A DNA stretch of 64,000 nucleotides from Zymomonas mobilis subsp. pomaceae ATCC 29192. Its GTDB lineage: Bacteria; Pseudomonadota; Alphaproteobacteria; Sphingomonadales; Sphingomonadaceae. The notes under the pieces are model-generated. The model did not search any database. It saw only the letters and a list, made by a program, of their open reading frames with translations, and was not told where the DNA came from. Below, piece after piece: positions 12,496 through 39,764 of this stretch. Position numbers and translations under genes: made by a program. The stretch spans positions 1,364,001-1,428,000 of the forward strand of contig NC_015709.1 of the NCBI RefSeq assembly GCF_000218875.1. The letters are read 5' to 3'. The stretch's first letter is position 1; each line of letters starts with the position of its first letter.

Positions 12496-13563
12496 TCAAA
12501 CTTGTGATTTTTTAATATCTAATGCTAATAAAGGATTCCACATGGCACCCGTTGCACTCATAACGGCATTCGCACCCGCCTTGATATAGGCTTTGTAATG
12601 GTCTGGATGGTTGACGCCGCCTACACCAACAATCACAAAGTCAGCCCCCATCTCCTGCCTAAAATGCGCTAAACGGCTGACCATTTCTAAACCGGCCCAA
12701 CGAATGGCATCCCCACATACGCCGCCTTCTGGGCGGTTTTCTGATAAAGCAGGGTGATTATTCTTATCCACAGGGCGCGCACTCAGTGTATTAATCGTGC
12801 TAAAACCTTGAACAAGATGACCGACCTTATCCAATAATTTTTTCAAATGGACATCGTCTTTAAAATAAGCTGTTTTTAACAGCAAAGGCCGATCTGGCAC
12901 CGTCGATTTTATTTTTTCAACAATGCGATACACCGCCTCGGTATCGAAACATAAAAGATTATTGACCCCTTCATTGGGGCAACTGAGGTTGGTTTCTATA
13001 ACCGGCGCGCCGGTTTCGGCTACAAGGCGCGCGGCTAAGGCGTAATCGTCTTCGATCTTTCCTTTGCCTTGGGTGCCCTGAAAACTGCCAATCATAATCT
13101 GCTTGTTTGACGCTGCCTTGACGGCTTCTGCCATGTCAGGTTGCCATATATCGGGGCTGAAGGAAGGGACGCCGAAAGAATTGGTAATAGATAACGGCTG
13201 ACTATAATTTTTATCAGCTAATACCGTATCACAATCAGCGGTCAGATGGCCGTTTGGATGAATAGCCAATACATTCGGCAAGGGATGACAAGCCTGCGCT
13301 TGGGTTCTCACCGTTTTATAAACGCAAAGATCAAAACCAAAGCGAAAAGCCGCCTTAATATATCGACTATTGAGCAAAGGGCCTGCTGGAATACCAAAAG
13401 GTATATCAACCTCTAATCCTAAAAAATTAGGGTTTTTCTTACCTGAAATTTCAGAATATCCAGATTCTGGAATGTTTTTTTCAGCAAAAAGGCCAAAAGG
13501 TCCTTCTTTATAGTTATCTTCATAACTTAAATCTGGATCATAAAATGGAACTTCATTTTTCAT
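12496..13563 (-). CDS. Class 1-like dihydroorotate dehydrogenase family FMN protein
   Basis: The 355-residue protein belongs to the FMN-binding TIM-barrel family of dihydroorotate dehydrogenases. The motif NLSCPN at 192-197 is the class 1 version; in that class the Cys (Cys195 here) is the active-site base and the two Asn contact substrate. The N-terminus, C-terminal VGVGGVNHPDHYKAYIKAGA (phosphate-binding region) and ITNSFGVPS are consistent. It lacks an N-terminal membrane-binding extension. Proteobacteria normally use a class 2 membrane enzyme for pyrimidine synthesis, so this may be a paralogue with another substrate. No pyr genes are next to it. The reaction is therefore given as a family assignment only. 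Confidence 0.75.
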   Translation of the reverse strand: MKNEVPFYDPDLSYEDNYKEGPFGLFAEKNIPESGYSEISGKKNPNFLGLEVDIPFGIPAGPLLNSRYIKAAFRFGFDLCVYKTVRTQAQACHPLPNVLAIHPNGHLTADCDTVLADKNYSQPLSITNSFGVPSFSPDIWQPDMAEAVKAASNKQIMIGSFQGTQGKGKIEDDYALAARLVAETGAPVIETNLSCPNEGVNNLLCFDTEAVYRIVEKIKSTVPDRPLLLKTAYFKDDVHLKKLLDKVGHLVQGFSTINTLSARPVDKNNHPALSENRPEGGVCGDAIRWAGLEMVSRLAHFRQEMGADFVIVGVGGVNHPDHYKAYIKAGANAVMSATGAMWNPLLALDIKKSQV

Positions 13564-36794: not shown

Positions 36795-36818
36795 ACATTG
36801 AATAATATAAAAATTTTT

Positions 36819-36849
36819 AAAAGGTAGGATACTATATCCTACCTTTTTT
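36819..36849 (+). terminator. Intrinsic terminator of sppA
   Basis: AAGGTAGGATA pairs with TATCCTACCTT around a three-base loop and is followed by a run of T. It sits about 25 bases after the sppA stop. It separates sppA from the ubiTU-ubiV unit. Confidence 0.85.
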
Positions 36850-36923
36850 ATTAGGGTAATCTTTATATTATAAAATTTTACTATGGGATGGAAAATGTTA
36901 TCCATAAAAATGGTATTTGAATT

Positions 36924-36945
36924 TTTGAAAAATTAATTTTTCAAA
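36924..36945. promoter_or_regulatory. 22-base perfect palindrome upstream of ubiTU, possible operator
   Basis: TTTGAAAAATT followed at once by AATTTTTCAAA is an uninterrupted perfect palindrome about 145 bases before the ubiTU start. Its AT-rich arms could bind a dimeric regulator. It is not a standard FNR/FnrN site (TTGAT-N4-ATCAA). The function is inferred only from symmetry and position. Confidence 0.4.
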
Positions 36946-37089
36946 TCTATGACAGGGTGAAGAAAGTCACATAAATGAGTCAATGCGCTATAAACGCTCA
37001 ATTCCAACAATTTATTGTTGCACTGTCTTGCCTAAAAGCGTTTTTCATAGAATAGATAGTTTATATTTTTTAAGGCTGAATTCGCATCT

Positions 37090-38832
37090 ATGAGTGCCCC
37101 CTCTTTGCTTTTTCGATCCCCGGTATCTTCCGCGTCTTCTTCACCCTTTGGGGCTATGTCAGCTGAACGTCAGGATTTATTTTTCTCTTTGGCTTTGACA
37201 GCATTACCCCGTCCTATGATTAATCCTTTATGCCAGATCGTTATTGCAAGGCTGGAAAGGCGTGTCCCGGGGCTCAAACAACGTCTTCAGCCTCTCGATG
37301 GTAAAAAACTTTTCGTTCAACCGGAAGAACTAGACGTTGGATTTCTCCTTAGTTTCAGAAATGGACATCCAGAATTAAATGCATTGGCAGTGGGTTCTCC
37401 TGTAAAAGTAGATGCCAAATTAGCGGCTTCTCTTGATACCTTTTTTGATCTGCTTCACGGAAAAAGTGATGGGGACGCTTTGTTCTTTTCTCGTGATTTA
37501 AAAGTTGACGGTGATATGGCGGTTGTCGTTGCGCTTCGAAACGCGATGGATGGTCTTGGGGAAGACTTGCTAAGTGATATTTTTTCGCCTCCTGCACCCT
37601 TCAATCATCTACTTAATCGGGTAAGTAGTGTTGCTAATCGTTGTGTAGATCGTGTCGTAGCGCCATTCCTGCAAAAAACAGCAAGGCTTGAGTCCGATAT
37701 TGGCTCTATGCGAGCAGAAATCGACCAATTACGACGGCATCAATATCAGAAAGCTCAGCCCCCCTTCTCCAAGGTAGAGGTTGTGTCCTCTGTAGAAAAA
37801 AATAACCGTACTTCACCTAAAGTTGACCAAAAACCTATAGAATTATTAGCACCAGCAGGCACACCCGCTGCACTTCGTTCGGCCATTGATGCCGGTGCTA
37901 ATGCTGTTTATCTTGGATTTCGTGATGAAACGAATGCTCGGAATTATCCGGGGCTCAATTTTTCCCGTGATGATCTGAAAGAAGGTCTCGCCTATGCGCA
38001 TGAGCGGGGGCGACGGGTACATGTTGCCATCAATACATATGCGGCAGCGGGTAATATGCAACCTTGGTATAAAGCTATTGATACTGCTGCTGAATTAGGC
38101 GTTGATGCTCTTATTATGGCGGATATCGGTTTATTATCCTATGCTAGTAAGCGGTATCCTGACCTTTCGCGCCATTTATCTGTACAGGCAGGTGCTTCTA
38201 CGCCGGCGGCTATTCAATTTTATTATGAAATGTTTGGTATTAACCGGATGGTTTTACCACGGATGTTCACTTTAGATGAAATCGCGATTCTGAAAGAAAA
38301 AGTGCCTATTGAAATTGAAACCTTCATATTTGGTAGCTTGTCACCGATGTCTGAAGGTCGTTGTGCTCTTTCTGCTTATGCAACAGGTCGTTCTCCTAAT
38401 CTTTGTGGAGTTTGTTCTCCTGCCGAGCATGTCCGCTATGAGAATCGCGAAGGTGTATTGGTGTCTCAGTTAGGTGATTTTGTGATCAACCGGTTTGAAG
38501 AAGGGGAGGCCGCTGGCTATCCTACACTTTGCAAAGGGCGCTATATTCCCGAAGGTGGAGACGCCTGTTACCTCTTTGAGAAACCAGAATGTCTTAATGC
38601 TGCAGAGTATATTGCTAGTTTGCGTGCCGCCGGCGTGACCTCATTTAAAATTGAAGGTCGGCAGCGTAGCCGTTTTTATACGACAGAAGTAGTTTCCTGT
38701 TTTCGAGCCTTATTGGATGCAGAAGCTGCTGGTGAAGCTATCGAAACTTTGCCAGATGTCTTAGAAAGATTGCATAAGTTAGCAGAGGGCGGAGAGGAAA
38801 CTCGGGGTGCCTATCGGAAAGGATGGCGATGA
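37090..38832 (+). CDS. ubiTU: UbiT-UbiU fusion: SCP2 lipid-binding domain plus U32 ubiquinone hydroxylase subunit
   Basis: Residues ~25-180 form an SCP2-like domain equivalent to UbiT, a lipid-binding accessory factor. A helical linker (~185-245) leads to a complete peptidase-U32-family domain (~249-580, starting IELLAPAGTPAALRSAIDAG) equivalent to UbiU. UbiU and UbiV carry Fe-S clusters and hydroxylate ubiquinone precursors without O2. The UbiU cysteines are spaced as in E. coli: Cys425, Cys442 and Cys481 match C176, C193 and C232. The place of C169 is Ser418, and an extra Cys439 sits nearby. The stop overlaps ubiV as ATGA. The true protease activity suggested by the family name is not expected. 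Confidence 0.85.
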   Translation: MSAPSLLFRSPVSSASSSPFGAMSAERQDLFFSLALTALPRPMINPLCQIVIARLERRVPGLKQRLQPLDGKKLFVQPEELDVGFLLSFRNGHPELNALAVGSPVKVDAKLAASLDTFFDLLHGKSDGDALFFSRDLKVDGDMAVVVALRNAMDGLGEDLLSDIFSPPAPFNHLLNRVSSVANRCVDRVVAPFLQKTARLESDIGSMRAEIDQLRRHQYQKAQPPFSKVEVVSSVEKNNRTSPKVDQKPIELLAPAGTPAALRSAIDAGANAVYLGFRDETNARNYPGLNFSRDDLKEGLAYAHERGRRVHVAINTYAAAGNMQPWYKAIDTAAELGVDALIMADIGLLSYASKRYPDLSRHLSVQAGASTPAAIQFYYEMFGINRMVLPRMFTLDEIAILKEKVPIEIETFIFGSLSPMSEGRCALSAYATGRSPNLCGVCSPAEHVRYENREGVLVSQLGDFVINRFEEGEAAGYPTLCKGRYIPEGGDACYLFEKPECLNAAEYIASLRAAGVTSFKIEGRQRSRFYTTEVVSCFRALLDAEAAGEAIETLPDVLERLHKLAEGGEETRGAYRKGWR

Positions 38833-39764
38833 ACACACCTATAAATGATCGTTTAACATTAGGGCCAGTGATGTTCTCATGGGCGGCTCGCTCTTTACGT
38901 GATTTTTATTTCCGTATCGCAGATGAAGCTGACATCGATACTGTTTATTTAGGTGAAGTAATCTGTTCTAAACGTTTTCCTTTTTTAAAACGTCATCTAC
39001 CTGAAATTATTGAAAGATTGCAGCAAGGGGGTAAAAAATTAGTATTTTCCTCTTTGGCCCTTGTCGGTACTGTTGAAGAAGTGTCGGAGATGGAAGATAT
39101 GGTCAGAACGGCCAAGGGCACCATCGAAGCTAATGATGTTAGTTTGGTGCGTCTTTTACAAGGAAAAGACCATCATCTTGGGCCTTTTGTTAATGTTTAT
39201 AATGAAGGAGCCCTTGATTTTCTTATCCGGCTAGGGGCTAAAAAAATATGCCTTAATCCCGAACTTCCTGCTTCTGTTATTAAAGAATTGGCTGCACGAA
39301 GTAGTGTGCCTTTGGAAGTTATTGCTTTTGGGCGGTTTCCTATTTCCATTTCAGCCCGTTGCTTTGATGCGCGTGCTAAAGGACGCAGTAAGGATGACTG
39401 TCGGTTTGCTTGCCTTAACCATGTAGATGGTTTGACAATTCAGACATTAGACAAACAACCTTTTTTAACGGTTAATGGAATGCAAACATTAACCTATGGC
39501 TGTGGCAATTTATTGCATGCAATGCCTGATTTACAACAGGCGGGTATTCATGACTTCCGGCTTTCTCCGCAGTCTGGAGATATGGTGGCTACAGCCTCCT
39601 TATTCCGTCAACGCTTAAAGGGCGAAATTGATGGGGATACGGCTAGTGCCTTGTTAGCTGAACTGCATCCTGAAATGCCCGGGTTTTCTAATGGATTTCT
39701 TTATTCAAAACCTGGGCATCAATTTATTACAGATGGGCCCGTACTGAATCCGATGCCGCTTTAA
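38829..39764 (+). CDS. ubiV: O2-independent ubiquinone biosynthesis protein UbiV
   Basis: This U32-family protein is the partner of UbiU in anaerobic ubiquinone hydroxylation. All four expected [4Fe-4S] cysteines are present with family spacing: one in GEVICSKR near the N-terminus, then SARC, DDC and FAC (C-x12-C-x3-C, matching C180, C193 and C197 of E. coli UbiV). The ATG at 38829 overlaps the ubiTU stop and has AAGGA five bases before it; an in-frame ATG at 38823 would add two residues. Its 3' end overlaps the convergent LTA-synthase-like gene by 38 bases. Confidence 0.88.
   Translation: MNTPINDRLTLGPVMFSWAARSLRDFYFRIADEADIDTVYLGEVICSKRFPFLKRHLPEIIERLQQGGKKLVFSSLALVGTVEEVSEMEDMVRTAKGTIEANDVSLVRLLQGKDHHLGPFVNVYNEGALDFLIRLGAKKICLNPELPASVIKELAARSSVPLEVIAFGRFPISISARCFDARAKGRSKDDCRFACLNHVDGLTIQTLDKQPFLTVNGMQTLTYGCGNLLHAMPDLQQAGIHDFRLSPQSGDMVATASLFRQRLKGEIDGDTASALLAELHPEMPGFSNGFLYSKPGHQFITDGPVLNPMPL

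What the first reader, a model, noticed from the sequence alone, without database searches (positions are those of the whole stretch)
37090..38832. UbiT fused to UbiU in one gene, upstream of UbiV
The gene joins an SCP2 lipid-binding domain (UbiT role) to a U32 domain (UbiU role), and ubiV overlaps it. In E. coli ubiT, ubiU and ubiV are separate genes. A fusion would deliver the lipid-bound precursor straight to the hydroxylase. It points to quinone synthesis without O2 in a fermenting alphaproteobacterium.
Basis: partly seen in the sequence, partly recalled or inferred. Interest (0 to 1): 0.75.

Follow-up and report, generated by a model that had tools for sequence, protein, structure and literature searches.

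The report
Fused UbiT-UbiU quinone gene in Zymomonas
In the ethanol-making bacterium Zymomonas, two proteins that other bacteria use to make ubiquinone without oxygen are joined into one; the fusion is real but was already reported in 2019, and what this check adds is how it probably arose and an odd change in one of its iron-sulfur ligands.

Summary
ORF 37090-38832 encodes 580 aa with a UbiT (SCP2) domain at residues 37-157 and a complete UbiU at 250-580. Both score above NCBI's curated cut-offs. ubiV follows and overlaps.

The genome fits Zymomonas mobilis subsp. pomaceae ATCC 29192. The fusion is already published: Pelosi et al. 2019 (PMC6747719) report it in two Z. mobilis genomes with ubiV downstream.

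New here:
- All 4 Zymomonas genomes searched carry the joined gene; 3 are intact, and AN0101 has a 1-nt shift in the UbiT half.
- No fusion was found outside the genus in the loci read. In 79 of 79 other alphaproteobacterial loci (58, 21) ubiT lies upstream of ubiU on the same strand, mostly within 51 nt, so the fusion probably arose by loss of one stop.
- Both domains are under purifying selection; the linker is looser.
- In Zymomonas, C169, one of four UbiU 4Fe-4S ligands mapped in E. coli, is serine, and a new cysteine lies three residues before C193 (C-X2-C).

Function in O2-independent ubiquinone synthesis is strongly supported by family. In-cis lipid delivery is a hypothesis. Verdict: known fusion, modest interest, one testable ligand question.

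The parts
37090..38832 (+). ubiTU: fused UbiT-UbiU gene, 580 aa
   Evidence: start codon M1 versus M23 not settled (residues 1-22 are variable among Zymomonas)
37198..37560 (+). UbiT / SCP2 lipid-binding domain (residues 37-157)
   Evidence: NCBIfam NF047962 65.3 bits, cut-off 46.9; Pfam SCP2
37630..37836 (+). linker (residues 181-249): predicted helix to about residue 221, then a low-confidence tail; fast evolving
   Evidence: (low-confidence model)
37837..38832 (+). UbiU domain (residues 250-580) with stop
   Evidence: NCBIfam NF047963 full-length, 479 bits, cut-off 440
38341..38343 (+). Ser418 codon at the place of E. coli UbiU Cys169 (a mapped 4Fe-4S ligand)
   Evidence: ligand identity from PMC6747719 passages
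38362..38415 (+). stretch holding Cys425 (= E. coli C176), the new Cys439, and Cys442 (= C193): C-X13-C-X2-C
38530..38532 (+). Cys481 codon (= E. coli C232)
38829..39764 (+). ubiV, ATGA overlap with the ubiTU stop (start at 38823 also possible); all four cluster cysteines kept (E. coli C39, C180, C193, C197)
36819..36847 (.). hairpin between sppA and ubiTU, reported as a minus-strand terminator-like site; may separate the two transcripts
   Evidence: consensus scan only
37027..37092 (+). block just upstream of the start that looks conserved, by eye, among four Zymomonas; candidate promoter and leader
   Evidence: DNA alignment; no FNR box

Best explanation
ubiTU-ubiV is the O2-independent ubiquinone-hydroxylase operon of Zymomonas. 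UbiU (C-terminal half of the fusion) pairs with UbiV, each with a 4Fe-4S cluster, to hydroxylate the prenylated ring without O2; the SCP2 (UbiT) half binds the hydrophobic precursor or tethers the enzyme to lipid. The fusion most likely arose when the stop of ubiT was lost from an adjacent, same-strand ubiT-ubiU pair, the arrangement seen in the other alphaproteobacterial loci examined. It fixes a 1:1 ratio and co-expression and may deliver substrate in cis. Shown here: domain architecture, conservation within the genus, likely ancestral gene order, purifying selection. Taken from E. coli work: the reaction and the cluster. Inferred: function in Zymomonas and in-cis delivery.
For: Curated equivalog hits for UbiT, UbiU and UbiV over cut-off; these are the only two U32 proteins found in the genome, and the other SCP2 protein (104 aa) has no NCBIfam hit. 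The joined gene is in 4 of 4 Zymomonas genomes, intact in 3. ubiT lies upstream of ubiU on the same strand in 58 of 58 non-Zymomonas alphaproteobacterial loci (gap -4 to 51 nt; 4 of 58 in the same frame) and in 21 of 21 (gap -13 to 143 nt). pN/pS for the closest pair: UbiT 0.15, linker 0.26, UbiU 0.02. The ubiV start overlaps the ubiTU stop. UbiV keeps 4 of 4 cluster cysteines. The genome also has an O2-dependent set (UbiH/COQ6-family hydroxylase and a COQ7-family protein), so UbiTUV would be the anaerobic branch. Literature: UbiTUV required for anaerobic UQ in E. coli (PMC6747719, PMC10470549, passages).
Against: UbiU lacks C169, one of the four ligands mapped in E. coli; whether C439 replaces it is unknown. 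No Crp/Fnr-type regulator reaches the cut-off in the genome and no FNR box lies between 36812 and 37089, unlike most ubiTUV loci (PMC11707229), so anaerobic induction is not indicated. One Zymomonas genome (AN0101) has the UbiT half out of frame, by error or by loss. No quinone-dependent PyrD reaches the cut-off, so the need for UQ in uracil synthesis shown in E. coli may not apply. The structure model was too poor to test domain contact. No Zymomonas mutant phenotype for this gene turned up in the passages I read.
Confidence: 0.85

Rival explanations
1. The fusion is only a way to co-express the two parts: the chain is cut in the linker, or UbiU is also made from an internal start, and no substrate is handed over in cis.
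For: The linker is the fastest-evolving part apart from residues 1-22 (pN/pS 0.26 to 0.51 across three pairs) and its second half is predicted with low confidence. An in-frame ATG some 41-45 codons before the UbiU domain stands at one aligned place in 3 of 4 Zymomonas, and a TTG a little further on in 3 of 4 (matched by eye with the alignment). The AN0101 gene would need a late start to make UbiU.
Against: No start codon in that stretch is kept in all 4 of 4, and by eye none of the three ATGs has a clear ribosome-binding site in the 18 bases printed. The linker stays in frame with UbiU in all four, and the whole gene is one frame in 3 of 4.
Confidence: 0.28
2. The UbiU half has lost or changed its hydroxylase activity (C169 gone), and the gene serves another role, for example as a UbiT-type scaffold for the aerobic enzymes.
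For: C169 is Ser in all four Zymomonas and in the nearest relative L008; the N-terminal conserved Cys (E. coli C5) is Ala in the same five. In E. coli, UbiT also acts at the shift to air (PMC10470549 passages).
Against: UbiU is by far the most constrained part of the protein (pN/pS 0.02), C176, C193 and C232 are kept, and UbiV keeps all four cysteines. Other alphaproteobacterial UbiUs also lack C169 (L009, L041, L122, L125).
Confidence: 0.12
3. The fusion is an assembly or sequencing artefact.
For: One of four Zymomonas genomes has a frameshift in this gene.
Against: The same in-frame fusion occurs in three separately assembled genomes, the window's protein being 78% identical to the other two, and Pelosi 2019 saw it in two genomes.
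Confidence: 0.01

Closest known systems
UbiT-UbiU gene fusion of Zymomonas mobilis, Pelosi et al. 2019, mBio (PMC6747719)
   Same: Same genus, same fusion, ubiV directly downstream; this is the same thing.
   Different: Which two strains they counted is not given in the passage I read; the junction, the cysteine change and the origin are not discussed in the passages I read (Fig. S3 and tables not seen).
E. coli UbiT, UbiU, UbiV (YhbT, YhbU, YhbV)
   Same: Same three families; E. coli UbiU is 46% identical to the window's UbiU; UbiV cysteines all kept.
   Different: Three separate genes, ubiT divergent from ubiUV; C169 present, no C-X2-C; FNR-regulated (PMC10470549 passages).
ubiTUV operon of sphingomonads such as Sphingopyxis granuli TFA (PMC7713065, passages) and loci L008, L009 here
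   Same: ubiT-ubiU-ubiV in this order on one strand; L008 UbiU is 69% identical, groups with Zymomonas (100/100) and also lacks C169.
   Different: ubiT and ubiU are separate genes; L008 has no C-X2-C. S. granuli has an FNR site upstream of ubiT.

Membership tests
UbiT (SCP2-type accessory factor) | SCP2 domain scoring over the curated UbiT cut-off | tested here: met
   65.3 bits against 46.9
UbiT (SCP2-type accessory factor) | Linked to ubiU and ubiV | tested here: met
   Same ORF as UbiU, ubiV overlapping
UbiT (SCP2-type accessory factor) | Binds ubiquinone precursors or lipid | not testable with these tools
   needs a binding assay
UbiU (O2-independent hydroxylase subunit) | Full-length equivalog match, distinct from TrhP and other U32 | tested here: met
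   479 bits against 440; TrhP model 181 bits against 534
UbiU (O2-independent hydroxylase subunit) | Four 4Fe-4S cysteines C169, C176, C193, C232 | tested here: not met
   3 of 4 kept; C169 is Ser418, with a new Cys439 nearby. Since 8 of 63 aligned UbiUs lack a Cys at that column, the feature is not universal; I keep the family name on the equivalog score and mark the cluster as untested.
UbiU (O2-independent hydroxylase subunit) | Forms a heterodimer with UbiV and makes UQ without O2 | not testable with these tools
   needs anoxic culture and purification
UbiV | Equivalog match and cysteines C39, C180, C193, C197 | tested here: met
   345 bits against 275; 4 of 4 cysteines
FNR-regulated ubiTUV locus | FNR box upstream and an FNR protein in the genome | tested here: not met
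   No match with up to 2 mismatches in 36812-37089; no PF13545 hit over cut-off, 4 weaker hits

The most novel reading that the evidence does not exclude
Zymomonas UbiU holds its 4Fe-4S cluster with a rearranged ligand set: Cys439 of a new C-X2-C takes the place of the lost C169, while relatives such as L008, L009 and L041 run with three of the four mapped cysteines (L122 and L125 also lack C169; their C232 was not read). That would mean C169 is a replaceable ligand, possibly marking an iron site open to the substrate or oxygen donor, which bears on how U32 hydroxylases work.
Probability: 0.3. Interest if true: 0.55.

Novelty: already known. Interest (0 to 1): 0.3.

Why it matters
The fusion is natural evidence that UbiT and UbiU act together, as Pelosi et al. 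already argued. It offers a single-chain protein for studying substrate delivery in O2-independent ubiquinone synthesis, in an organism whose anaerobic use of ubiquinol is unclear (PMC12817903 describes an unexplained anaerobic role of the quinol-oxidizing cytochrome bc1 pathway; passages). The loss of C169 in this lineage and others gives a direct test of which cysteines the cluster of a U32 hydroxylase really needs.

Tried and rejected
Internal translation start for UbiU: not excluded. No start codon is kept in the linker of all four Zymomonas, but one ATG and one TTG are each kept in 3 of 4; on recount I raised that rival from 0.25 to 0.28. FNR control: no box and no regulator over cut-off; the 2-mismatch site nearest upstream, 36798-36811, lies before the hairpin, and such sites are common in this window (89 found, 56 expected). 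TrhP/YegQ identity for the U32 half: far below its cut-off. A second UbiT elsewhere: the other SCP2 protein is 104 aa and has no NCBIfam hit. Uracil synthesis as the anaerobic need for UQ: no class-2 PyrD over cut-off, so not claimed. Structure: the AlphaFold2 model from four rows has mean pLDDT 53.5, with residues 1-201 (the UbiT half) and 415-434 below 50, so I drew nothing on domain contact or cysteine geometry and ran no fold search. Solved structures: no match below E 0.08 for either half. A viral-contig scan gave one UbiU (L088), used only as an alignment row. Rows dropped before counts: second views of the same genome (L005, L006, L007, L012, L013, L044-L046) and L010, L011 (no UbiU) were left out; L073 (cut off by its contig end) was left out of the tree. 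Not read frame by frame: matched genomes without a locus, other than the ten fetched; some of these are cut by contig ends (for example G811, G622) and G762 has an unusable frame.

Full report
What is there. The ORF at 37090-38832 (+) is open for 580 codons. Pfam finds SCP2 and Peptidase_U32 in it. NCBI's curated equivalog models find UbiT at residues 37-157 (65.3 bits, cut-off 46.9) and a complete UbiU at 250-580 (479 bits, cut-off 440); the related tRNA hydroxylase model TrhP scores 181 against a cut-off of 534. The next gene is UbiV (345 bits, cut-off 275). An ATG at 38829, present in the three sequences compared (window, G001, AN0101), overlaps the ubiTU stop as ATGA; a start at 38823 is also possible. 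Upstream lies sppA, then a hairpin at 36819-36847 (consensus scan, reported for the minus strand). Downstream is a convergent sulfatase-family gene.

Which organism. The genome has 2,061,413 bases in 3 contigs of 1,989,865, 37,387 and 34,161 bases. These fit the 1.99-Mb chromosome and the plasmids pZYMOP01 (37.39 kb) and pZYMOP02 (34.16 kb) of Z. mobilis subsp. pomaceae ATCC 29192 in PMC5919020 (passages). One stretch of about 9-10 kb from each small contig was compared with the plasmid collection: 51 of 51 and 50 of 50 records matched are Zymomonas, though the listed matches cover at most 20% and 23% of the query. The strain name is an inference from sizes.

Already in print. Pelosi et al. 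[quoted passage not shown] The finding is therefore a rediscovery. It was the only paper in the library with UbiT, UbiU, UbiV and Zymomonas together. In passages of four other Zymomonas or UbiUVT papers (PMC10746277, PMC7451989, PMC12817903, PMC10470549) I saw no mention of this fusion, and in PMC11707229 and PMC13386864 the words searched for fusion do not occur.

How far the fusion extends. Genus: 4 of 4 genomes have the gene, 3 as one ORF. In the fourth, G002, which corresponds to Z. mobilis AN0101 (L003), the same layout is broken by a 1-nt deletion beside a T-run in the UbiT half, leaving frames of 149 and 476 aa. Family sample: 8 of 397 genomes match; four are Zymomonas, two more have UbiU (L008, L009) with ubiT as a separate gene, and two have only a weak match in the SCP2 part. 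Class sample: 78 of 385 match at E <= 0.001, many of them other U32 proteins. Order sample: 32 of 396 have UbiU at E <= 1e-60. Phylum sample: 122 of 398 at E <= 1e-50. These samples overlap and must not be added. I read the frames of 63 loci (4 Zymomonas, E. coli, 58 others) and 35: no fusion outside Zymomonas. Every UbiU-level match (E <= 1e-50) with an open frame over 500 aa was among those read, except G762, whose frame is given as 24,341 aa, presumably a run of N. The rest were not read one by one; their frames are too short to hold both domains, but some are cut by contig ends.

How it arose. In 58 of 58 non-Zymomonas alphaproteobacterial loci, ubiT is upstream of ubiU on the same strand, with -4 to 51 nt between the ubiT stop and the UbiU domain; in 4 of 58 the two are in the same frame. 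The 21 further loci of this class agree (21 of 21 same strand, -13 to 143 nt). One of them, L091, reads through both genes with a single stop between. Outside the class the layout varies: of the other 14 loci, 7 gave no UbiT hit and 2 have it on the other strand. Loss of one stop or a small indel gives the Zymomonas gene. The UbiU tree puts the four Zymomonas with L008 at 100/100 and the Zymomonas as one branch at 100/98 (bootstrap not fully settled, E. coli and L009 on long branches), so the fusion most simply postdates the split from L008.

Selection. Between the closest pair, G001 and W26, pN/pS is 0.15 for UbiT, 0.26 for the linker and 0.02 for UbiU. Against the window, synonymous sites are near saturation, while pN is 0.19-0.21 (UbiT), 0.45-0.46 (linker) and 0.07 (UbiU) for G001 and W26. 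Both domains are maintained.

The cysteine change. Pelosi et al. mapped UbiU's cluster to C169, C176, C193 and C232 of E. coli, tested as double mutants plus C176A alone in vivo, and call them strictly conserved (passages). In the window C176, C193 and C232 are kept (C425, C442, C481), but C169 is Ser418, and a new Cys439 gives C-X2-C with C442. In one search, 8 of 63 UbiUs lack Cys at the C169 column: four Zymomonas, L008 (Ser), L009 and L041 (Gly), and L020, which has a Cys one place further on. C-X2-C occurs in 5 of 63: the four Zymomonas and L014, which also keeps C169. In one search, 2 of the 34 loci whose motif could be read lack C169 (L122, L125), and L120 has both C169 and C-X2-C. So the column is not universal, and in these loci only Zymomonas combines the loss with the nearby new cysteine. 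The passages I read do not mention this, but I could not see the supplementary alignments. The structure model is too weak in this loop to measure distances.

Pathway context. The genome has one UbiH/COQ6-family hydroxylase and a COQ7-family protein (the COQ7 protein is over the Pfam cut-off but under NCBIfam's), hence an O2-dependent branch. It has only two U32 proteins over cut-off, UbiTU and UbiV. No Crp/Fnr-type regulator reaches the Pfam cut-off and no FNR box lies between 36812 and 37089, whereas PMC11707229 finds candidate FNR sites at 87% of ubiTUV triplets (passages). Expression may thus be constitutive or otherwise controlled (inference). No class-2 PyrD reaches the cut-off. An anaerobic quinol-oxidizing pathway has a phenotype in Z. 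mobilis according to PMC12817903, its acceptor unknown (passages).

Verdict. Real, correctly read, already published as a fusion. The function is very likely O2-independent ubiquinone synthesis; direct handover of the precursor is plausible but untested. The open point worth a bench test is the replaced cluster ligand.

Noticed in passing
window 12496-13563 (-): A 355-aa divergent member of the dihydroorotate dehydrogenase family (Pfam DHO_dh 67.9 bits, but all NCBIfam DHODH models listed are far below cut-off). It is the genome's only hit to the quinone-dependent PyrD model, and that below cut-off; its class and electron acceptor are unclear.
   Followed up: partly
L003 (Z. mobilis AN0101), UbiT half: 1-nt deletion beside a T-run splits the fused gene into 149- and 476-aa frames, while codons on both sides still show purifying selection: sequencing error or a recent break.
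   Followed up: partly
L008, L009, L041, L122, L125: UbiU proteins without the C169 cluster ligand and without a C-X2-C; L009, L122 and L125 share a GN(H/I)G(L/M)MVEGRC signature, which hints at a separate subgroup or transfer.
   Followed up: partly
own genome G000: No Crp/Fnr-family protein over the Pfam PF13545 cut-off, although all 14 control genomes have one or more; I would call this unusual for a facultative anaerobe, from memory.
   Followed up: no
L088 (IMG/VR contig), 1-2460: A UbiU gene at the end of a contig filed as viral, next to an ORF that looks (from memory) like a DNA adenine methylase: probably a prophage border.
   Followed up: no
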